A stretch of DNA of 33,113 bases from Oscillochloris sp. ZM17-4 (GTDB lineage: Bacteria; Chloroflexota; Chloroflexia; Chloroflexales; Chloroflexaceae). Below are positions 4,943-25,683 of the stretch, one piece after another (position 1 is the stretch's first letter; each line of letters opens with the position of its first letter). The DNA is taken from the NCBI RefSeq assembly GCF_019599295.1, contig NZ_JAIEWN010000020.1, forward strand, positions 70,767-103,879, written 5' to 3'. Under the pieces are notes generated by a model, which worked only from the letters and a program-made list of their open reading frames with translations, searched no databases and was not told the origin of the DNA. The position numbers were made by a program, and so were the translations under genes.

Positions 4943-5599
4943 TTACATTAGATCCCTAAATAAAAGTTCCCACTGCTGTTGATCGTCATTTGTCAAATCT
5001 CTGTAATGCAGTATCTGGAGCCGTAACGGAATACTCGTATTTTCCAACAAAACAGGTATCAGCTTTCGTTGTAATGCACCAGGGTCTTGAGTCTGAGCCA
5101 TTGCATTCTCAAATTTAGACCACTCACTGGAAATATAGTCAGGCGTTAACACTATTAGTACTCGTTTGCAATCTATTACACCTCTTTGCATTTCTTCCAC
5201 GCTAAAACTTCCTGCTTGAAAATCACGAATATCAATTATCACTGAAAACCCTCGCTGCTCTAAGGCAGGAAGCAACTTTTCTCTCACCCATTGGCCATTC
5301 TTGTGACTGTAACTAATAAAAACATCTTTTTTGTAAAGAGTTGACGACAATGGCGTATTTGATCCAATCACACTCATCTTAACTGCCTTTCGATTGACTT
5401 TGGGTTCTAGTACTTGAAGGGTTGTCAATAAGACAAGCACGAGTAGACCACCAAATATCATACTCCATAATAATACCGGATTTGTTTTAATAAAATCAGG
5501 AACATCTACAGACGCATAATTGGTTAAGAGACTTAATACAAATCCAACTATTGCAATCAAAAAACTCATAAGGATAGCAAATGGACGTATTTTTTTCAT
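4943..5599 (-). CDS. Membrane-anchored TIR-domain protein, candidate defence effector
   Basis: The product has 218 residues. Two hydrophobic helices (about 8-27 and 42-62) are followed by a TIR domain from residue 91: KDVFISYSHKNGQWV (strand A and box 1), the helix EKLLPALEQRGF, IDIRDF, then KRVLIVLTPDYISSEWSKFE. E164 in W-S-K-F-E occupies the position of the catalytic glutamate of NAD-cleaving TIR domains. The TIR domain should face the cytoplasm. The start lies 11 bases beyond the stop of the TIR-STAND gene, so the two form one operon with this gene second. In known TIR systems the effector depletes NAD+ or makes or senses a nucleotide signal; which applies here cannot be told from sequence. 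Codon use is AT-rich, unlike all flanking genes, pointing to transfer. Confidence 0.85.
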   Translation of the reverse strand: MKKIRPFAILMSFLIAIVGFVLSLLTNYASVDVPDFIKTNPVLLWSMIFGGLLVLVLLTTLQVLEPKVNRKAVKMSVIGSNTPLSSTLYKKDVFISYSHKNGQWVREKLLPALEQRGFSVIIDIRDFQAGSFSVEEMQRGVIDCKRVLIVLTPDYISSEWSKFENAMAQTQDPGALQRKLIPVLLENTSIPLRLQILHYRDLTNDDQQQWELLFRDLM

Positions 5600-5610
5600 G
5601 TAAAAACCCC

Positions 5611-8355
5611 CTAATCGATGATTGACTTAATAGTTTCTCTAATCGCCACCAAGCTCTCCAGTAGTTCAACTAGAGGCAAGGAGTATTTCAAAGACTTGTA
5701 ATCTTCCAATTTTTGTATTGCGAGATCTGCAATAAGAAGAGCCTGTCCGTATTCATGTTGAGCAAGTTTTGATTGTGCTTCAGCGAGATCTGCCCAGTAT
5801 GCCTCATACAAAGTATAAGGATTACCTGTAGTAAGATAGGGCTGAATACTTCTTCGAGCGTTATACCAATTACCTAGACCACGATATAACTTAGCTGTAA
5901 TAGTAGCAATCACCTCTTCATCACGTTGATTTTTTGGTCTATAACTATTAATGATTTGCAACGCATAATTCAATTGTTCTTCTTTGACGCTTTTGTCTGT
6001 TAATTGCGAAACTTCAGCCCAGATAATATTTGCCAGGCTTAGAACTGCCTGTGTAGCACCATATCGCCTGGCATTTTCGGCGTAAAACCTCGCATCTTTA
6101 TAATTCTCCTTCTTTCGATATATCTCAGCAAGACGATAATTTAATCTACTATCATCAGGATTCTCATCAAGAGCATCGTGTAGCAAAGGCAAAGCACGAT
6201 CCTCAAAGCCTGCTTGAATCAATGCTTCAGCATAAAGACCCAAATGTAGACGATCAAAATAGGAACTACGACGACGAGCCTCTTCAAGCCATCGTTTGGC
6301 TTCACGTGCATTATGACGAATATCATCTTCGGAAAGCAAGGGATTATCTTCTAACTCCCTTAATAGAAGTTGAGCAAGACCAATATAATTCTCGGGATAA
6401 GGGTGCGGACTGTAAACTTCGATCCCCTTACGATACAATTCTTTTGCTTCTTCTAAATTGCCACTATATTCAGCAAGTAATGCTTTTTCACGATACAACC
6501 GGGCAGTAAATCGTTTTCTGAAATCTTTTCTCTCAAGATCTTCTATTATTTTCGATGCTCTTTGCAGGCTTGAGCCAATACGCTTTCGACGATAACTACG
6601 AGCCTGATAAAGCATCACTTCCAGATCATCTGGATTAAGGCGTAACCACTTTTCCGCATAATAGAGAGCCTTATCATTATCTTGTTTTGTTTGATAATAG
6701 AAGAAAACCATTTCTCGCAGTACGCCTTCTATGCTAACAGGCAAACGCTCTGCAAGCGCGTCTTCACCTACAGACCGAAGAAGGCGACCGGCTGGAATGG
6801 CATACCGAAGCACTTCATTTGATTTCCATACAACATTGTTATTTGACAGCCCAGCCTCATGAGAAATATGCAATAGCTCCTGATTAGAGGAAAGTGCCTT
6901 GTCAAATGCAAACTTTCCGTAGTCCCGAGCAATGCTATCCATTAGCTCAGATTGTTCCTCTAATTGGCGCTGGAAGTACGAAACAAGAAACCGATGCATA
7001 TAAACATATTCACCACTTAAATCTAATATCAACTTATTTACAAGTTCAAATCTTGCTTGTTGAACTTGTTCTATAGAGTAAGCTTGTAAGACCTTCACAG
7101 CCATCATATCTTCGATAGACATAGGTTCTTGCACAACAGCAAGTATCTGTAGTATCATGTGTTGAATTTCGCTCAATTGCTCTTGATTGATAGCACGAAG
7201 TATATGTTGTGCAAGGCTAAGCTGTATTCTTTGCCTGGATTGGATCGAAAGCGTTAAGTCTCCAAACTTTATCTGCGAGGCAACTATTTTTGCCACTAGA
7301 GGATAACCTCCTATCATTTGAACAGTATCATCAAAAGCAGAGCCATTGATATCGCTGATTCTTACGGGACTGTCTTCTAATAACAAATCAATGTACTCTC
7401 GAATATATACATCATCAATTTCTCCTAAACGAAAAACATCTGCATTACTAGCGATTAATGCAGAATATTCAGGACGGCGAGTTATTGCAACAACAATACG
7501 GGTATCAATATTTCGTTTGATAAACTTTTCCAGAAACCTCTCAAAGTATGGCAGCACATAATTAGATGCATCTAGCCCTTCTTCAGCATCATCTATAAAA
7601 ACATAATAATCATTTGCTCGTTTAGATACTGCATCAAGTGCCAATTCCACTAAAGTTTCTTTAGAAATACTAGTATCACCCAAGGGTTGAAGAGTGCGCG
7701 CTTCTTTAATAATTTCTCTGGCAAGGCGATCTTCTGAATGACCGCGTGTTAATTCAATAGTCATGGGTCTTCTACTCAGTTTCTCCGAAACAGTCTTTTT
7801 TACAAAAGAAGACTTACCAATACCTGCTAAACCAAGGACAAATACGATCTGATTCCTTCGTGATGTCAAAGAGAAACGATCTCCATCACTGCCTCTATCA
7901 ACATAAAGTGTCTCACGAGATCTAGTAGTGATGGTTTTGTCTATAAGTTCTGCTAAGGCCATAAAATTCCGCTCAATCTCATCTTTGTCTTTCATTGAAA
8001 CATCAATCAGACTGTCTTGGAGAGCTAACTGCAATTGAATTGATAGTTCAGCAGCGTCTAGTCTTATTCCAACCACTCGAAAATCGCTTGCCATCATTGC
8101 ACGAGTAGTTGTCATATTTAATTCTCTTTGCACCCAAGGGGAAATGATAGAGTTGGCACTTAAAAAAACTACAAACCACTTGGCATTTACAACAGCATCA
8201 TCTATAACATTTGATACTAAATCACCAGCAAATAAGTCAAAATCTCTCATCCACACCTGATCACCAGTATAAGCAGTAATGATGTCGCGTAATTGCAACG
8301 CCACATCTCTGTCCTCGGGAGCATAGGACAAGAAGACGGTCTTTGAACTTGCCAC
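5611..8355 (-). CDS. TIR-STAND NTPase-TPR protein, candidate NLR-like anti-phage sensor
   Basis: The product has 914 residues. An N-terminal TIR domain (about 5-140) contains KTVFLSYAPEDRDVA, WMRDFDLFAGD and WVQREL, with E78 at the catalytic position. It is followed by a STAND/AAA-type NTPase: Walker A GLAGIGKSS (K181), Walker B YVFIDDAEEG (D255/D256), a sensor-like RIVVAITRR, and the GGYPL motif typical of NB-ARC-like modules. The C-terminal 350 residues are tandem helical repeats of TPR type (ALYYAEKWLRLNPDDLEVMLYQA; EEAKELYRKGIEVY). The start is GTG at 8355, behind a strong GGAGG six bases away. By analogy with bacterial NLR-like (Avs/STAND) proteins, the repeats would sense a phage component, the NTPase would oligomerise and the TIR domain would act. 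The pairing with a second, membrane-bound TIR protein is the unusual part. Confidence 0.88.
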   Translation of the reverse strand: MASSKTVFLSYAPEDRDVALQLRDIITAYTGDQVWMRDFDLFAGDLVSNVIDDAVVNAKWFVVFLSANSIISPWVQRELNMTTTRAMMASDFRVVGIRLDAAELSIQLQLALQDSLIDVSMKDKDEIERNFMALAELIDKTITTRSRETLYVDRGSDGDRFSLTSRRNQIVFVLGLAGIGKSSFVKKTVSEKLSRRPMTIELTRGHSEDRLAREIIKEARTLQPLGDTSISKETLVELALDAVSKRANDYYVFIDDAEEGLDASNYVLPYFERFLEKFIKRNIDTRIVVAITRRPEYSALIASNADVFRLGEIDDVYIREYIDLLLEDSPVRISDINGSAFDDTVQMIGGYPLVAKIVASQIKFGDLTLSIQSRQRIQLSLAQHILRAINQEQLSEIQHMILQILAVVQEPMSIEDMMAVKVLQAYSIEQVQQARFELVNKLILDLSGEYVYMHRFLVSYFQRQLEEQSELMDSIARDYGKFAFDKALSSNQELLHISHEAGLSNNNVVWKSNEVLRYAIPAGRLLRSVGEDALAERLPVSIEGVLREMVFFYYQTKQDNDKALYYAEKWLRLNPDDLEVMLYQARSYRRKRIGSSLQRASKIIEDLERKDFRKRFTARLYREKALLAEYSGNLEEAKELYRKGIEVYSPHPYPENYIGLAQLLLRELEDNPLLSEDDIRHNAREAKRWLEEARRRSSYFDRLHLGLYAEALIQAGFEDRALPLLHDALDENPDDSRLNYRLAEIYRKKENYKDARFYAENARRYGATQAVLSLANIIWAEVSQLTDKSVKEEQLNYALQIINSYRPKNQRDEEVIATITAKLYRGLGNWYNARRSIQPYLTTGNPYTLYEAYWADLAEAQSKLAQHEYGQALLIADLAIQKLEDYKSLKYSLPLVELLESLVAIRETIKSIID

Positions 8356-11906: not shown

Positions 11907-11950
11907 CGGTCATCTCACCATGCTATAGTGAGCCAAGAAGGCAGCGACTA

Positions 11951-11983
11951 CGCGCCACCCGCACCCTGCGGTGGCGCGTTTTT
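11951..11983 (+). terminator. Intrinsic terminator before the terminase gene
   Basis: CGCGCCACC (11951-11959) pairs with GGTGGCGCG (11970-11978), followed by TTTTT. It lies within an upstream extension of the terminase reading frame, which argues that the terminase starts at 12024. Confidence 0.8.
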
Positions 11984-12023
11984 GTTGCGCCGTGGGCGGG
12001 TGGCGTCTCCCCTCCAGGACGCC

Positions 12024-13442
12024 ATGACTGCGGCGAGCACGCACTACCACACCGCCCAACTTGAGCTTGCCCGGCGCGAGCTGGAGCGGCGGCGGCGCGC
12101 CACGATCGCCGCCACGCCCTTTGGCGATTGGCTTCCCCAGGTCACCCCCGAGTACACATGGGGCTGGGCGCACCTCGTCTACATCCGCAGCTTCCTCGAC
12201 CGTGTCACCAGCGGCGAGCTCAAGAAGCTGATGATCTTTGTCCCACCACGTCATGGCAAAAGTGAACAGACCACAGTGCGCTATCCGGTGTACCGGATGG
12301 ATCGCGACCCGCGCACCCGCGTCATCGTCGGCTGCTACAACACCGATTTGGCCACCAAGTTCTCGCGCGATGCGCGGCGCATCGCGGCCCGGCGCGGGCT
12401 GACCCGGCACGGCCTCAAGAACACCGAGGCCGAATGGGAGGTGGCCGGCGGTGGCGGCTTCCGCACCGCCGCCGTGGGCGCGGCACCGACCGGGCGCGGC
12501 GCCGACCTGATCATCATCGACGACCCGGTGCGCTCGCGCCAGGACGCCGATAGTGAGACCTACCGCAACGCGGCCTACGCCTGGTACTCGAACGATATGT
12601 ACACCCGCCTGGAGCCGGGCGGGGCGATCATCCTGATTATCACGCGCTGGCATGAGGACGACCTGGCTGGCCGCATCCTGGCCAGCGAGGACGGCCCGAA
12701 CTGGACGGTCTGCTCGCTGCCTGCCGAGGCCGAGGAGGGCGACCCGCTCGGCCGCACGGTCGGGCAGGCGCTGTGCCCCGAGCGGTTCGACGAGGAGGCG
12801 CTGGCCGGCATCCGCGGCGTCCTGGGCATCGACTACTACGCGCTCTACCAGCAGCGGCCGGTCGCCGACGAGGGCGGCCTGTACCAGCGCGACTGGTTTG
12901 TCTACAGCAAGCCGCCGGCGACGGTGCGCGGCGAGCTGCTCTTCGACTACATTCTGCAGGCATGGGACACGGCCTCGTCCAAGCTCGGCGACTACTCGGT
13001 GTGCGTGACCGCCGGCATCACGAATACCCAGGTCTATGTGCTCGATGTGTTCCGTGATCGCCTGGAGAGCCCGGATCTTAAGCGCGAGGTCGAGCGGCTG
13101 GCCGAGTCCTGGGGACCCCGCGCCATCCTGATCGAGGACGCCTCCAGCGGCATCGCCATCCAGCAGATGCTGCGGCGCGAGACGAAGCTGCCCATTATCG
13201 CCGTGCCGCCTCACAAGGCGGGCAAGGTGAGCCACGCCCGCGCCAACGCCGTCTACTTCGAGGGCGGGCGCGTGATCTTCTGCCCCGGCGCCTACCTCCC
13301 CGCCCTGGAGCGCGAGCTGCTCAGCTTTCCTTCTGGCACCCACGACGACCAGGTGGACGCAATCAATGTGCTCATCACCAGGGTCTATGCTGCCGTGGCG
13401 AGTGGCCGGGCTGGCTCGCACAGCGGCTCGGGCCGGGGCTAG
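12024..13442 (+). CDS. terL: Phage terminase large subunit (TerL)
   Basis: The product has 472 residues from the ATG at 12024. The ATPase domain shows Walker A PPRHGKSE (K79), Walker B LIIIDDP (about 162-168) and the coupling motif ITRWHEDDLAGRIL. The C-terminal RNase H-like nuclease shows QAWDTASSKLGDYSVCV, LIEDASSG and THDDQVDAI, which supply the acidic metal-binding residues. All hallmarks are intact, so a working DNA-packaging motor-nuclease is expected. TerL cuts concatemeric DNA and drives it into a prohead through the portal. No portal, capsid or tail gene is found nearby; the next gene block starts with another promoter module. The frame is open back to 11928, but that extension contains a terminator hairpin and no ribosome site. 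Confidence 0.93.
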   Translation: MTAASTHYHTAQLELARRELERRRRATIAATPFGDWLPQVTPEYTWGWAHLVYIRSFLDRVTSGELKKLMIFVPPRHGKSEQTTVRYPVYRMDRDPRTRVIVGCYNTDLATKFSRDARRIAARRGLTRHGLKNTEAEWEVAGGGGFRTAAVGAAPTGRGADLIIIDDPVRSRQDADSETYRNAAYAWYSNDMYTRLEPGGAIILIITRWHEDDLAGRILASEDGPNWTVCSLPAEAEEGDPLGRTVGQALCPERFDEEALAGIRGVLGIDYYALYQQRPVADEGGLYQRDWFVYSKPPATVRGELLFDYILQAWDTASSKLGDYSVCVTAGITNTQVYVLDVFRDRLESPDLKREVERLAESWGPRAILIEDASSGIAIQQMLRRETKLPIIAVPPHKAGKVSHARANAVYFEGGRVIFCPGAYLPALERELLSFPSGTHDDQVDAINVLITRVYAAVASGRAGSHSGSGRG

Positions 13443-22281: not shown

Positions 22282-22296
22282 CGCCAGGAGATTGTG

Positions 22297-22803
22297 ATGA
22301 GCGCCCTGATGGGAAAATTAAGCGGCCAACAGATTGCGCTGGCGCTCGTGCTCAAAGAGCTGCACCACGGCGACGACGCGGCTTCCCGCGCCGTCGATCG
22401 CCTGCTCAAAGATCCGCTGGTGCCGCCGCTGATCTCCTTCGACGGCGTCGAGGCCATCTTCCAGTCCGGCAGCGAGCCTGAGGTGCAAAACGTCACCACA
22501 GCTGAGGGCTGCTCCTGTCGCGGCGGTCGCCACCCCTGGTGCGTGCATCGCGTCAGGTTCCGCATCCTGATGGCCGAGATGGCGCTGCGCGACCCGCTGG
22601 GGCTGCTGAGCGCGTTCGTCGAGCACACGCCGGACGACCTGCGCCGGCCGCAGCCATACCCCTGGCCAAGCCCGGCGCGCTTGACGAGCTCTATCCCAGA
22701 GCTATCATTGCCCGACAGCCTGCCACCAGCGCGCCCCCTGCCCAGAGTCTCGCCGCCGTCTGTGGATCTCCAGCGCGAGATTGATGAGCTGTTCCCCGAT
22801 TAG
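22297..22803 (+). CDS. SWIM-type zinc-finger protein
   Basis: The product has 168 residues from the ATG at 22297, behind CAGGAG (GTG at 22294 is possible). Residues about 70-82 (CSCRGGRHPWCVH) give the C-x-C-x(n)-C-x-H signature of SWIM zinc fingers, which mediate nucleic-acid or protein contacts in MuDR-type transposases, SNF2 proteins and recombination factors. Before it lies a helical region (LSGQQIALALVLKELHHGDDAASRAVDRLLKD), after it RILMAEMALRDPLGLLSAFVEHTPDDL and a long proline-rich tail. A decayed copy exists at 23836-24248. Finger assignment is good; the role is unknown. Confidence 0.7.
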   Translation: MSALMGKLSGQQIALALVLKELHHGDDAASRAVDRLLKDPLVPPLISFDGVEAIFQSGSEPEVQNVTTAEGCSCRGGRHPWCVHRVRFRILMAEMALRDPLGLLSAFVEHTPDDLRRPQPYPWPSPARLTSSIPELSLPDSLPPARPLPRVSPPSVDLQREIDELFPD

Positions 22804-22936
22804 GGAGGGGAATACGGACACGTTGATAGCGTTTCAACGTCGGGTGTCGCATGCCCCAGGAGCGGATCACACGCTCATCTTTGCCCTGGCCCAAATCCTC
22901 TACGAGGAGAGCTCGACCCGATTCCGCGAGGCGATT

Positions 22937-23218
22937 ATGGACAAGATCGTCTACAACGGCGAGACAGTCTGGTTCCGCCCGCCGACCCGTTACCAGTGGC
23001 GCAAGGATCGCGCCGACGCCATCGCGATGGTCGAGGCGATGGCCGCCGACCTCGGCGTCACGGTGGCCCCGCCCGCCAAGCCGAAGCCGATTGCCGTCCA
23101 GGGCAAGGCTCCGCGCGGCCCGGAGAGCCGAGAGCACCTGACGATGCTGGGCAGGCTCTACGGTGAGCACGTCGAGGTCGGGTTTGGCGAAGAGCCGGAA
23201 TCGCACCGGAACCGCTAA
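22937..23218 (+). CDS. Hypothetical protein with C-terminal MLGR.Y motif
   Basis: The product has 93 residues from the ATG at 22937 (GAGG five bases upstream). The frame is open back to 22781, where it overlaps the SWIM gene, so a longer form is possible. Residues 1-45 (MDKIVYNGETVWFRPPTRYQWRKDRADAIAMVEAMAADLGV) resemble a small single-strand or nucleotide-binding fold, but no family is recognised. The tail REHLTMLGRLYGEHVEVGFGEEPE matches that of the 21628 protein. It is the last convincing gene of the phage-like block. Confidence 0.6.
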   Translation: MDKIVYNGETVWFRPPTRYQWRKDRADAIAMVEAMAADLGVTVAPPAKPKPIAVQGKAPRGPESREHLTMLGRLYGEHVEVGFGEEPESHRNR

Positions 23219-23273: not shown

Positions 23274-23301
23274 TAGACAGGACGCTAATCTGTGCTATAA
23301 T
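23274..23301 (+). promoter_or_regulatory. Sigma70-type promoter, diverged relative of the repeated modules
   Basis: TAGACA (23274-23279), 16-base spacer, TATAAT (23296-23301), with TGC extended -10. The surrounding ACAGG.CGCT..TGTGCTATAAT resembles the repeated modules but lacks the upstream inverted repeat. Expected start of transcription is about 23308. Confidence 0.8.
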
Positions 23302-23412
23302 GGTAGTAGTTTATGGTTCAGGGGTGGGGTTTCCCGCTTGGGTGCGAAAGCCGGTTCGACTCCGGCTTGTGAACAGCTGGTCCGCAAAGAGGGCTTTCGA
23401 AAGGAGGCTCCT

Positions 23413-23595
23413 ATGCGGATAGAGTGGCTTGCTGGTCTGCTGAGTATGTCGGCGGAGTTAATTGATCACCTGCTCGTGCTGATAGGCACTACGTCTGTGA
23501 GTTGGTTGGTGTTGACTCAACTGGTTCTCTCTGCGGTTCAGTTGGTTTGCATGGTCCTCGGCCGGTCGCGCCCTGTATTTTACAGTACCCCCTAG
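23413..23595 (+). CDS. 60-residue hydrophobic membrane peptide
   Basis: ATG at 23413 follows AAGGAGG by 6 bases. The product is MRIEWLAGLL at the start, then almost continuous hydrophobic sequence with one or two membrane helices (about 3-24 and 29-49), and a basic end (GRSRPVFYSTP). Size and layout fit small membrane toxins of the Hok/TisB/AapA kind, but there is no sequence match I recognise. It is encoded inside the fold-back transcript and has a private promoter and terminator. Other options are a holin-like or small regulatory membrane protein. Codon use is less GC-rich than in the genes upstream. Confidence 0.6.
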   Translation: MRIEWLAGLLSMSAELIDHLLVLIGTTSVSWLVLTQLVLSAVQLVCMVLGRSRPVFYSTP

Positions 23596-23608
23596 AGCCA
23601 TAAACTAA

Positions 23609-23648
23609 AAGGAGGATTCGCTAACTATAGCGAATCCTTCTTTTTTTG
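23609..23648 (+). terminator. Strong intrinsic terminator
   Basis: GGATTCGCTA (23614-23623) pairs perfectly with TAGCGAATCC (23628-23637); the stem extends outward by about five weaker pairs and is followed by a run of T's up to 23647. This is the most canonical terminator in the window. Confidence 0.92.
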
Positions 23649-23835: not shown

Positions 23836-24248
23836 ATGGTGACTACCAAGCCTGCCGCGGCTGCGCCAGCCTTGTATATCCCTCCTCCCTCGACGCTGGC
23901 CGCGCTGCCCGACCCGCAGGTCGGCCTGGACGAGGTGCTCAAGCTGCTGTTACCCGACGATGCCGCGCTTCACCGCGTCATCGCCTAGCTGTGCCGCATG
24001 CGCTACGTCCACCCGGCCTTGGCGTTCGACGGCATGGATGCCACTTTCCAGTCATCGTCGCAAGGGGACGCAGAGTATCACCATGTTGGCCTGGACAACG
24101 ATGGCCAGGAGCCGATTGTCCAGGCCGAGGCCACCCTTGGTGCATTTACCGCCTGCGCTTTCGCCTGGAGTTGGCCGAACTGGCGCTTTGCGACCCGCTG
24201 AGGCTGCTGAGCGCGTTTGCGGAGCATATGCCGGATGACCTGCGGTGA
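23836..24248 (+). pseudogene. Decayed paralogue of the SWIM-type gene
   Basis: The frame from ATG 23836 (MVTTKPAAAAPALYIPPPSTLAALPDPQVGL) is stopped by a TAG after VIA (about 23986). It resumes in the same frame as RMRYVHPALAFDGMDATFQSSS and then shifts frame before RGHPWCIYRLRFRLELAELALCDPLRLLSAFAEHMPDDLR. The last part matches the intact 22297 protein (RHPWCVHRVRFRI.MAEMALRDPLGLLSAFVEHTPDDLR). The C-x-C half of the zinc finger is lost at the frameshift. This is an old duplicate of the SWIM gene with at least one nonsense and one frameshift change. Positions 23649-23835 hold no gene. Confidence 0.75.
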
Positions 24249-24303
24249 CCCACAACAGGTGGAGGAAGAAGTCCGGGAGAGGAGGGGGGAAGCCGTCGCA
24301 CGA

Positions 24304-24354
24304 TGACACAAACCCGCCCCCGCCAAGCTGCTCGGCAGGGGCGGGTTTGTGTCA
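24304..24354. terminator. 17-bp perfect hairpin at the end of the PIN gene
   Basis: 24304-24320 pairs perfectly with 24338-24354 and the stem continues for three more pairs inside. The hairpin contains the stop codon of the PIN gene. There is no clear T-run on either side, so it may protect the 3' end or act as a bidirectional stop. Confidence 0.65.
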
Positions 24355-24864
24355 GGGCGTCTCTTCAGGGGCTTCCAATTGTTCCAAGCGCAGTTGGACA
24401 CCCGCAGGTTCTCCAATAGGGCGTCCTATCAAAACGGTATAGCGCGGCCACTTATCATCGTATGTATGCACCTCACTTGCTTGCACATATTGCGCGGATG
24501 CCAAATGTATTGCATCAGCGGCACGAAAACCAGTCCACCCCTGATCAAGGGCAGCGCGGCGCAACGCTCGGCTCTGGCGCATAATGCCTTCGTGTGGCTC
24601 CACAAGCTCGATTAAGGTGCGATCGGCCCAGAGCGTATCGATGCGCGATTCGGTGTCGGGCATCAGGCGCCCACGGGTGCGCTCTTCTGCGGTGAACACG
24701 ACTTCGGCAATCGTCAGCGTTGAGGTGACGATCTTTACTCGGCCAGCATTATGGCGGATTTGTGCAAACCACGCCTCAATCATATCTACACGTACCGGCT
24801 CTTTTTGAAGGTACGCAAGAAAGACCGATGTGTCCCAGTAGATGAAGTCGGGTCTAATCGCCAT
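24352..24864 (-). CDS. PIN-domain ribonuclease, VapC-like toxin
   Basis: The product has 170 residues. The PIN-domain acidic residues are in place: D in YWDTSVFLAYL (about residue 11), E in STLTIAEVVF (about 54), D in FRAADAIHLASA (about 116) and D in HTYDDKWP. PIN toxins cleave RNA, often tRNA or rRNA, with Mg2+ held by these residues. The gene overlaps the end of its upstream partner by 11 bases, the usual arrangement of toxin-antitoxin pairs with the partner first. The partner is much longer than ordinary VapB antitoxins. A hairpin covers its stop codon. Confidence 0.85.
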   Translation of the reverse strand: MAIRPDFIYWDTSVFLAYLQKEPVRVDMIEAWFAQIRHNAGRVKIVTSTLTIAEVVFTAEERTRGRLMPDTESRIDTLWADRTLIELVEPHEGIMRQSRALRRAALDQGWTGFRAADAIHLASAQYVQASEVHTYDDKWPRYTVLIGRPIGEPAGVQLRLEQLEAPEETP

Positions 24865-25609
24865 CCCGTAGACTCCTGACTAGTTTTTCTGCAGGAGGAT
24901 CGCCTTCGCCAAAGGGAAGTGCACCACGAGCCTGGCGATATGCGTCGGGCGCGACCGGCTCGGCAATGGTGACATGGGTGATATGTCGAACGGCAAGCGG
25001 CCTCCAGGTTTCAGGATCGCGGGTAACGACTCCTTCAACAGTCGCATGTTTGCCCCAGGCATTGCGCATTAAATCTTCATCGCGCTCGCTTAAGTAGCAC
25101 GCCACCGGACGATCGAATAGCGTGTCGTATAAGATAAAGCGCAGACCCCGGCGATTAGTGAGCGTTTGAATGGTTCCACGAACAGTACTGATCGCGGTTG
25201 GCAGTTCGCGAACCGGTTCTTTTGCACGCGGTGTGATAGCAAAATCCCCAAGGTGGGTTTGAAACCGTAGGCGCTGGACTGATGGGCGCTCGGCAACATC
25301 GGCTAATGCCTGAGCCGCCTTTCGAATCTTTGGGCCATAGGGAACGTGGGTCTTAGCGGCAAGTGCCTCGCCGACAGAATGATAGGCGCGCACAAGTAGC
25401 GGCCCTGCATCAGGAGTGCGTGCGTTTACTGCAAATGTGCTAATAGCACTGCTCGCCTCAAGTTCTGCAACGCTATAGGACACATCATCTTTGGGCGCAA
25501 GATCAGTTGCGAGCTGCCGCAGTAGCTCGGAAAGCCGGCGTATGCCAAGGCTAAAATCTTCTAGGCTGATGTCGCCGTCAAGTGCAAGTGTAACACTTGT
25601 GTCAGCCAT
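24854..25609 (-). CDS. Partner of the PIN protein, possible long antitoxin of unknown family
   Basis: The product has 251 residues from ATG 25609 (GGAGG six bases upstream; GTG at 25612 also in frame). Its N-terminal part (SVTLALDGDISLEDFSLGIRRLSELLRQLATDLAP) and SVAELEASSAISTFAVNART suggest a small alpha-beta domain. The centre (GTIQTLTNRRGLRFILYDTLFDRPVACYLS) and HATVEGVVTRDPETWRPLAVRHITHV look like an OB-fold-type barrel. There is no ribbon-helix-helix or AbrB motif, so it is not a normal VapB. The 11-base overlap with the PIN gene argues for a functional pair. It could be an antitoxin or a substrate-binding partner. Confidence 0.65.
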   Translation of the reverse strand: MADTSVTLALDGDISLEDFSLGIRRLSELLRQLATDLAPKDDVSYSVAELEASSAISTFAVNARTPDAGPLLVRAYHSVGEALAAKTHVPYGPKIRKAAQALADVAERPSVQRLRFQTHLGDFAITPRAKEPVRELPTAISTVRGTIQTLTNRRGLRFILYDTLFDRPVACYLSERDEDLMRNAWGKHATVEGVVTRDPETWRPLAVRHITHVTIAEPVAPDAYRQARGALPFGEGDPPAEKLVRSLRDGD

Positions 25610-25683
25610 CACCCACCTCCCCTACGTTCTGCTCATCGTAGAGGTATATCGTAACACGCGACTGGGTCATCTGCTGTCCTGAT

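What the first reader, a model, noticed from the sequence alone, without database searches (positions are those of the whole stretch)
23307..23648. Self-contained fold-back transcript encoding a 60-residue membrane peptide: candidate new type I toxin
Promoter, predicted start, ribosome site, hydrophobic ORF, stop and terminator all fit within 375 bases. The first 18 transcribed bases pair with the last 19 before the terminator, burying the stop codon, as in hok- and AapA-type mRNAs. The peptide has the size and hydrophobic layout of such toxins.
Basis: partly seen in the sequence, partly recalled or inferred. Interest (0 to 1): 0.8.

Follow-up and report, generated by a model that had tools for sequence, protein, structure and literature searches.

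The report
Fold-back mRNA for a membrane peptide
A small gene in a phage-like island of a Chloroflexales-type bacterium makes an RNA whose two ends are predicted to zip together and whose start site is predicted to be hidden, and it encodes a short greasy peptide; one distant relative keeps both the zip and the peptide, so the unit is very probably real and resembles bacterial self-poisoning (type I toxin) genes, but it has not been shown to be one.

Summary
A promoter matching 11 of 12 consensus bases (predicted start 23308), a 16-pair terminal helix (23308-23323 with 23590-23606), a Shine-Dalgarno (SD) hairpin, a 60-codon ORF (23413-23595) and a terminator (23607-23644) form one unit. No Rfam, Pfam, NCBIfam or PHROG model fits. 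A covariance model of the window sequence alone found one accepted relative in 158 class genomes (G033:C1193, locus L047, a Chloroflexales MAG): own promoter, a terminal helix of different sequence (11 of 12 pairs kept, 5 by changes on both sides), the SD hairpin (17 of 17 pairs kept) and the peptide (54 codons without a gap, 18 identical residues, codon-position differences 29/23/37). Not supported: the buried stop is not conserved (in L047 the frame runs through helix and terminator). In energy models the SD is hidden by its own hairpin, not by the terminal helix, unlike AapA. No antisense promoter is shared. The peptide is predicted as two helices. Best reading: a type I-toxin-like, translation-silenced membrane-peptide cassette on a mobile island. 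Toxicity and antitoxin are untested.

The parts
23274..23301 (+). promoter, TAGACA-16-TATAAT, extended -10; predicted start 23308
   Evidence: L047 has TTGACA-17-TATAGT at 1463-1491
23308..23323 (+). 5' strand of the terminal helix P1
   Evidence: compensated in L047
23324..23337 (+). G-rich hairpin GTGGG-GTTT-CCCGC; in L047 a GGG..CCC hairpin at the same place appears in the 40-, 60- and 70-nt nascent folds, not in the full-length fold
23348..23368 (+). T-loop-like hairpin, loop TTCGACT 23355-23361 (L047 loop TGAAAAC); inner 5 pairs shared, one by a change on both sides; 2 outer pairs not kept
23380..23420 (+). SD hairpin: GTCCGCA..TGCGGAT outer stem, inner stem pairing CTTTC with GGAGG; covers SD and start codon
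   Evidence: 17 of 17 pairs kept in L047, 6 with one-sided changes; 32 of 41 aligned bases identical
23400..23407 (+). Shine-Dalgarno AAAGGAGG
23413..23595 (+). 60-aa hydrophobic ORF; residues 1-54 align without a gap in L047, C-terminus not conserved
23574..23592 (+). 19-nt stretch absent from L047 in the alignment; it shifts the frame so that the stop falls in P1
   Evidence: alignment A7
23590..23606 (+). 3' strand of P1, holding the stop codon TAG 23593-23595
23607..23644 (+). intrinsic terminator, 17-bp stem plus T run, directly next to P1

Best explanation
A mobile, self-contained gene for a roughly 55-residue two-helix membrane peptide whose mRNA is made in a silent, long-lived form. 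Supported by comparison of two sequences: own promoter, end-to-end helix kept by compensating changes, SD hairpin kept, peptide kept. Inferred: the terminal helix plus terminator shields both ends from exonucleases and holds the RNA compact; the SD hairpin (GGAGG against an upstream pyrimidine-rich strand, start codon at the outer stem) keeps ribosomes off; a trigger (end trimming, nuclease cleavage or loss of a partner RNA) opens the start site, and the peptide inserts into and disturbs the inner membrane, as an addiction or abortive device of the phage-like island. It would work like a type I toxin mRNA with local SD sequestration.
For: Relative L047 with the same parts in the same order, 141 of 277 aligned bases identical, BLOSUM62 peptide score 80 against a maximum of 58 in 5,000 shuffles of its sequence, codon-position differences 29/23/37. 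P1 11 of 12 pairs kept, 5 by changes on both sides; SD hairpin 17 of 17; RNAalifold returned these helices without being told. Slid controls drop from 95.8% to at most 55.6% paired cells. Hydropathy maxima 2.16 and 2.17 over 19 residues; two predicted helices 2-25 and 31-50. Mobile setting: terminase and other phage-type genes around the window copy, a phage-integrase gene (Pfam E 1.5e-18) just upstream in L047, and a relative (G027) in which the two flanking genes are separated by 181 nt instead of 617. Review: membrane type I toxins are generally under 60 aa and hydrophobic (PMC8309996 passages).
Against: Only two sequences. No toxicity, RNA or antitoxin data; no shared antisense promoter. 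The terminal helix does not alter predicted SD pairing. RBS opening cost (21.9 and 20.7 kcal/mol) lies within the range of 18 other ORF starts in the window (6.4-33.9) and under the 95% point of 300 random positions (25.6). Codon adaptation 0.352 is near that of random synonymous codons (mean 0.298, 5-95% range 0.24-0.37), though also near that of the PIN pair (0.389, 0.366). End duplexes as strong as the window's occur at 3.6% of same-geometry positions when the ends may slide. A chance frame in L065 (antisense to what reads by eye as a NADH dehydrogenase gene) scores 72 with the peptides after a search of 400 genomes, so peptide score alone would not suffice. In L047 no stop precedes the terminator, odd for a working gene. 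L047 is in a MAG with 7% contamination. The relative was found with a model that contained the helix, which favours relatives that have it.
Confidence: 0.42

Rival explanations
1. A phage-type accessory ('moron') peptide that is not an addiction toxin: superinfection exclusion or holin-like, with a structured mRNA that limits its dose.
For: Own promoter and terminator between two phage-island genes that lie side by side in a relative; two predicted helices, as in small holins and some exclusion proteins (recalled).
Against: No lysis protein among the 20 window proteins scanned with Pfam (other window ORFs were not scanned); no PHROG match of the peptide; the effort spent on silencing translation seems more than a constitutive exclusion protein needs (inference).
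Confidence: 0.25
2. An RNA-sensor-controlled small membrane protein: the T-loop hairpin and the junctions form a receptor (ligand, tRNA or temperature) that opens the SD hairpin; the peptide is a stress or transport factor, not a toxin.
For: 5' domain with a T-loop-like hairpin in both members; SD helix with several G-U pairs.
Against: No Rfam family at its gathering score in the window element, and below gathering only low-scoring matches, in the window element and in L047; the 5' domain between P1 and the SD hairpin is less conserved (27 of 50 bases).
Confidence: 0.18
3. Primarily a structured noncoding RNA (tRNA-mimic, Y-RNA-like or phage ornate RNA) with an incidental ORF.
For: Perfect T-arm motif GGTTCGACTCC: the pattern GGTTCGANTCC has 27 hits in the genome against 2 for the reversed control (of 6 hits looked at, 4 besides this one are in tRNA, tmRNA or tRNA-like sequence and 1 is not); strong fold.
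Against: The ORF is kept without a gap over 54 codons, with the fewest changes at the second codon position and an SD; the relative's loop is TGAAAAC, not a tRNA T-arm sequence; the genome's tmRNA lies elsewhere.
Confidence: 0.1
4. Chance fold and ORF.
For: 2 of 60 random segments fold as well or better relative to shuffles; 238 of 6,543 same-geometry positions have as strong an end duplex.
Against: Recurrence of promoter, helix, SD hairpin and peptide in L047.
Confidence: 0.03

Closest known systems
aapA/IsoA type I toxin-antitoxin (Epsilonproteobacteria)
   Same: Short toxin ORF, pairing between the two mRNA ends, SD held in hairpins (PMC6733600 passages)
   Different: There the end-to-end pairing itself supplies an anti-SD and 3' trimming gives the active form; here the SD hairpin is local and independent of the end helix in prediction. 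AapA3 ORF 90 nt; here 180 nt. No antisense RNA found. No profile or Rfam match.
hok/Sok
   Same: Stable fold-back mRNA with hidden SD, activated by 3' processing (PMC6733600 passages; further details recalled)
   Different: No sok-like antisense promoter shared by the two loci, two predicted helices, no family match. A mok-like frame was not searched for.
MsoT1/MsoA1, Microcystis (type I TA outside the classical phyla)
   Same: Precedent for an unrelated type I locus in another phylum (PMC12390103 abstract and passages)
   Different: Growth effect tested there, not here; relationship to this peptide not examined
Small phage holins or exclusion peptides
   Same: Two predicted helices, phage setting
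   Different: No PHROG match, and only a weak Pfam match taken as chance; elaborate predicted mRNA fold

Membership tests
Type I toxin-antitoxin system | antisense RNA that pairs with the toxin mRNA | tested here: inconclusive
   Only promoter scans with home-made weights: window - strand best 9.3 (start ~23570), its -10 lying in the stretch absent from L047; L047 - strand best 5.5 at another place; + strand promoters score 13.9 each. A trans-encoded RNA cannot be excluded.
Type I toxin-antitoxin system | peptide toxic when expressed alone | not testable with these tools
   needs induced expression
Type I toxin-antitoxin system | small hydrophobic helical membrane peptide, generally under 60 aa (PMC8309996) | tested here: met
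   60 aa in the window (78 in L047 if read to its stop), GRAVY 1.05 (0.46 for the long L047 form, 1.17 for its first 54), 19-residue maxima 2.16 and 2.17; at the edge of the size range, and two helices predicted at mean pLDDT 68.5
hok/AapA-type fold-back mRNA | conserved pairing of 5' and 3' mRNA ends | tested here: met
   11 of 12 pairs kept in L047, 5 by changes on both sides; two sequences only
hok/AapA-type fold-back mRNA | removing the 3' end frees the SD | tested here: not met
   Predicted mean SD unpairedness 0.375-0.377 in 9 full, trimmed or nascent forms, 0.382 in a tenth cut inside the anti-SD strand; prediction only
hok/Sok family, AapA family | sequence similarity to known members | tested here: not met
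   No Pfam, NCBIfam, PHROG or Rfam match at cut-off; no direct alignment with Hok or AapA was made
Bacterial Y RNA / tRNA-like RNA / tmRNA | tRNA-like fold or covariance match | tested here: not met
   No gathering-score match at the element; tRNA-Sec 16.9 bits against a cut-off of 47; genome tmRNA at C115

The most novel reading that the evidence does not exclude
A new family of mRNA-silenced membrane toxins carried by mobile elements of Chloroflexota, a phylum for which my two paper searches found no described type I system, in which end clamping and SD hiding are done by two separate RNA modules and a T-loop hairpin adds a third, possibly sensory, module.
Probability: 0.3. Interest if true: 0.78.

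Novelty: new variant of a known kind. Interest (0 to 1): 0.6.

Why it matters
Type I toxins are hard to find by sequence and, according to a 2025 paper (PMC12390103, abstract start and passages), had been reported only in Proteobacteria, Firmicutes and Tenericutes before its cyanobacterial case. This locus was picked out by RNA architecture, and a relative supports that architecture with compensating changes. If it is a toxin, it extends the kind to Chloroflexota and shows that end-to-end pairing recurs in unrelated toxin-like mRNAs with a different division of labour. If it is not, it is still a two-member family of structured mRNA for a conserved membrane peptide, ready for bench testing.

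Tried and rejected
Relatives sought without success: blastn in phages and plasmids; tblastn of the window peptide in phages and plasmids and of the L047 peptide in phages; DNA in 61 and 158 genomes and, with the wider flank, 82 genomes, own included; peptide patterns in viral and genome collections; DNA patterns; model R2 in 400 phylum genomes; model R3 in 158 and 400 (one search finds L047 again); peptide profile A4 in 400 phylum genomes. The phylum draw evidently did not contain G033, which R3 would have hit; the same probably holds, so the peptide-profile search had no positive control but the window itself. Model R1 was built and never searched with.

33 of 400 genomes, own included, hit at E<=0.1, 34 places; 20 places had loci. 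Of these, one is the window; the other 19 (L065-L083) were compared with the two peptides, L065 was read and searched with R3, L080 and L081 were read in part, and L066-L083 were searched with R3 (only L081 10.8 bits and L077 8.9 bits at E<=0.1, taken as chance). The hits lie in open frames of 34 to 1,041 aa; none was accepted, L065 (score 72) being antisense to another coding frame. The 14 places without loci were not looked at.

Rows rejected after looking: L046, L048, L049 (R2 hits); L056-L063 (R3 hits), judged by eye as coding or unrelated DNA without SD hairpin and peptide. The short DNA hits (L004-L014) were only glanced at. One search gave 5 stretches: L051 is the same record as L047, the other 4 begin other proteins. 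One search gave L050, a glycine-rich stretch. One search gave 3 (L084-L086), none with the peptide. One search gave 20 stretches: 19 begin unrelated proteins or a 12-codon frame; L096 looked like a 61-aa relative (scores 38 and 35), but by eye it is the end of a longer in-frame membrane ORF, and R3 does not match it.

Ideas rejected: tmRNA or permuted tmRNA (own tmRNA at C115; no tag-like end by eye); tRNA attachment-site remnant (the exact T-arm word otherwise occurs only in the tmRNA and in a stretch of C106 without a T-stem); Y RNA (no covariance match). The weak Pfam hit to a viral family (E 0.0066, below cut-off) and the NCBIfam hit (E 0.013, below cut-off) of the window peptide are taken as chance. 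PDB sequences: no match to A4.

Full report
What was checked. The window lies at G000:C96:70767-103879 in a 6.69-Mb genome of 182 contigs. The order is Chloroflexales by inference: a same-family genome, G033, contains a record titled as a Chloroflexales MAG. The stretch 23274-23644 holds an 11-of-12 promoter with extended -10, a predicted start at 23308, a terminal helix beginning on that very base, a SD and 60-codon ORF, and a 17-bp terminator that abuts the helix. The fold has z -6.5 with terminator and -5.3 without; 2 of 60 random segments of the window were lower. End duplexes as strong as the observed one occur at 238 of 6,543 same-geometry positions when 26x33-nt ends may slide and at 20 of 10,938 + strand positions, itself included, for 19x19-nt ends. 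The window alone is therefore suggestive, not decisive. The ORF by itself shows no excess structure (z 0.03).

The relative. A covariance model of the window sequence alone (R2) run over 158 genomes of the class gave, besides itself, four weak hits. Three were judged chance by eye and do not match the later model R3 at E 0.1. The fourth, G033:C1193:4532-4820 (18.2 bits, E 0.028; locus L047 1501-1789), carries a TTGACA-17-TATAGT promoter, a predicted start at about 1498, helix GATTGGTGCTTTTCGGGTG / CACCCGAAAGGCACGGATC, SD hairpin GATCCGCAAAG...AAGGAGGTTCTTATGCGGAT, an ORF beginning MRISW, and a terminator-like hairpin at 1794-1830 with a weak T run (the terminator by eye and fold only). The peptide aligns over 54 residues without a gap, 18 identical, score 80 against at most 58 in 5,000 shuffles; codon positions differ 29, 23 and 37 times. 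For scale, the best chance frame brought up by the peptide-profile search of 400 genomes scores 72 (L065), but L047 was reached through the RNA model, not by searching for the peptide. BLAST had not found it in the DNA searches of 61 and 158 genomes, both of which list G033.

The structure test. On the MAFFT alignment A7, RNAalifold without a given structure returned 67 pairs, among them P1 (11 of 12), the inner T-loop stem and the whole SD hairpin. Counting the named pairs: P1 11 of 12 kept, 5 with both sides changed, 1 with one side changed, 1 lost; SD hairpin 17 of 17 kept, 6 with one side changed; T-loop hairpin 5 of 7 kept, 1 with both sides changed; overall 95.8% of cells paired, against 35-56% when partners are slid; 9 of 500 shuffles reach the observed value, which by my reckoning is about the least that two sequences can give. 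The relative's end duplex is reached by no other of 7,710 + strand positions and by 0 of 7,710 - strand positions of its 8-kb locus at the same spacing; its fold has z -5.1, 0 of 150 shuffles lower. Caveat: the model that found L047 contained the helix, so a relative without it could have been missed; the peptide-profile search (400 genomes) brought up no accepted relative of either sort, but probably did not include G033 and so had no positive control besides the window.

The stop codon lies in P1 only in the window. A 19-nt stretch (23574-23592) is absent from L047, whose frame runs on through P1 and the terminator hairpin to a stop at 1849-1851; either its terminator is leaky or the full-length RNA has no stop. 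The SD is predicted to be about equally buried in full, 3'-trimmed, 5'-trimmed and nascent forms (mean unpairedness 0.375-0.377 in 9 forms; 0.382 when the cut falls inside the anti-SD strand). In AapA3 the end-to-end interaction supplies the anti-SD and 3' truncation gives the translated form (PMC6733600, passages seen). The opening cost of the start region, 21.9 and 20.7 kcal/mol, is high next to starts 13580, 19566 and 20707 of the window (7.7, 7.0, 6.8) but within the range of all 18 ORF starts compared (6.4-33.9) and below the 95% point of 300 random positions (25.6). No antisense promoter is shared.

The T-loop hairpin. The window sequence has a full T-arm word, GGTTCGACTCC; the pattern GGTTCGANTCC occurs 27 times in the genome against 2 for the reversed control. 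I looked at 6 of the 27: this one, the tmRNA, two tRNAs of the window, a tRNA-like stretch at C172 and a stretch at C106 without a T-stem. In L047 the loop is TGAAAAC on a 5-bp stem, so what is shared is a 7-base loop opening with U and with R-A at positions 4-5, which fits the general U-N-N-R-A T-loop pattern (recalled). A tRNA or Y-RNA identity is not supported. Its role is unknown; docking within the RNA or binding of a partner are inferences.

Setting. Around the window copy lie a terminase (11928-13439), an ATP-dependent ligase, and a protein with a PHROG match of unknown function and a DUF5131 match below cut-off. In G027 the counterparts of the genes on both sides (window 22781-23218 and a frame-broken gene from 23836) are separated by 181 nt instead of 617, and none of three pieces of the window's gap resembled the G027 gap more than shuffles did (39, 59 and 163 of 200 shuffles reached the score). 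The cassette was therefore gained here or lost there, or the gap diverged beyond recognition. In L047 the cassette follows a phage-integrase gene (Pfam Phage_integrase, E 1.5e-18). Both suggest a mobile accessory unit.

Verdict. Structured mRNA plus conserved membrane peptide: about 0.9. Membrane toxin or toxin-like silencing as the working principle: about 0.4. Formal type I system with antisense antitoxin: about 0.25. Literature seen: PMC6733600, PMC8309996 and PMC12390103 (passages), PMC12654330 (passages; it counts orphan toxins in Chloroflexota, without a named type I family in what I saw); other papers only as listings. Searches for a type I system in this phylum: 'type I toxin-antitoxin' with 'Chloroflexi', 0 papers; 'type I toxin' with 'Chloroflexota', 1 paper, the one just named; open-licence full texts only.

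Noticed in passing
G000:C172:138765-139518 (locus L019 1212-1965): A TROVE (Ro60-type) domain fragment (46 bits, positions 1-161 of 442) with a tRNA-like sequence just upstream (tRNA-Sec model 24.2 bits, below cut-off): a possible bacterial Y RNA and Ro pair, apparently truncated.
   Followed up: partly
window 23836-24250 and 22294-22803: A frame-broken gene right of the cassette holds a diverged copy of part of gene 22294-22803 (128-nt repeat, 76% identity); in G027 its counterpart reads by eye as an intact ORF.
   Followed up: partly
window 24352-25612 (-): PIN-domain protein overlapping a 252-aa unknown ORF, both with low codon adaptation (0.389, 0.366); possibly a toxin-antitoxin-like pair.
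   Followed up: no
window 4943-8355 (-): TIR protein with a hydrophobic start (by eye) next to a TIR-STAND-TPR protein, resembling defence proteins (PADLOC hits bSEFIR, ThsB, PDC-S66).
   Followed up: no
L047 1615-1851: The peptide frame crosses the predicted terminator with no stop before it: a possible non-stop message, comparable in principle with arfA (recalled).
   Followed up: no
window 24304-24354: Long inverted repeat that matches its own reverse complement (51 nt, 90%).
   Followed up: no
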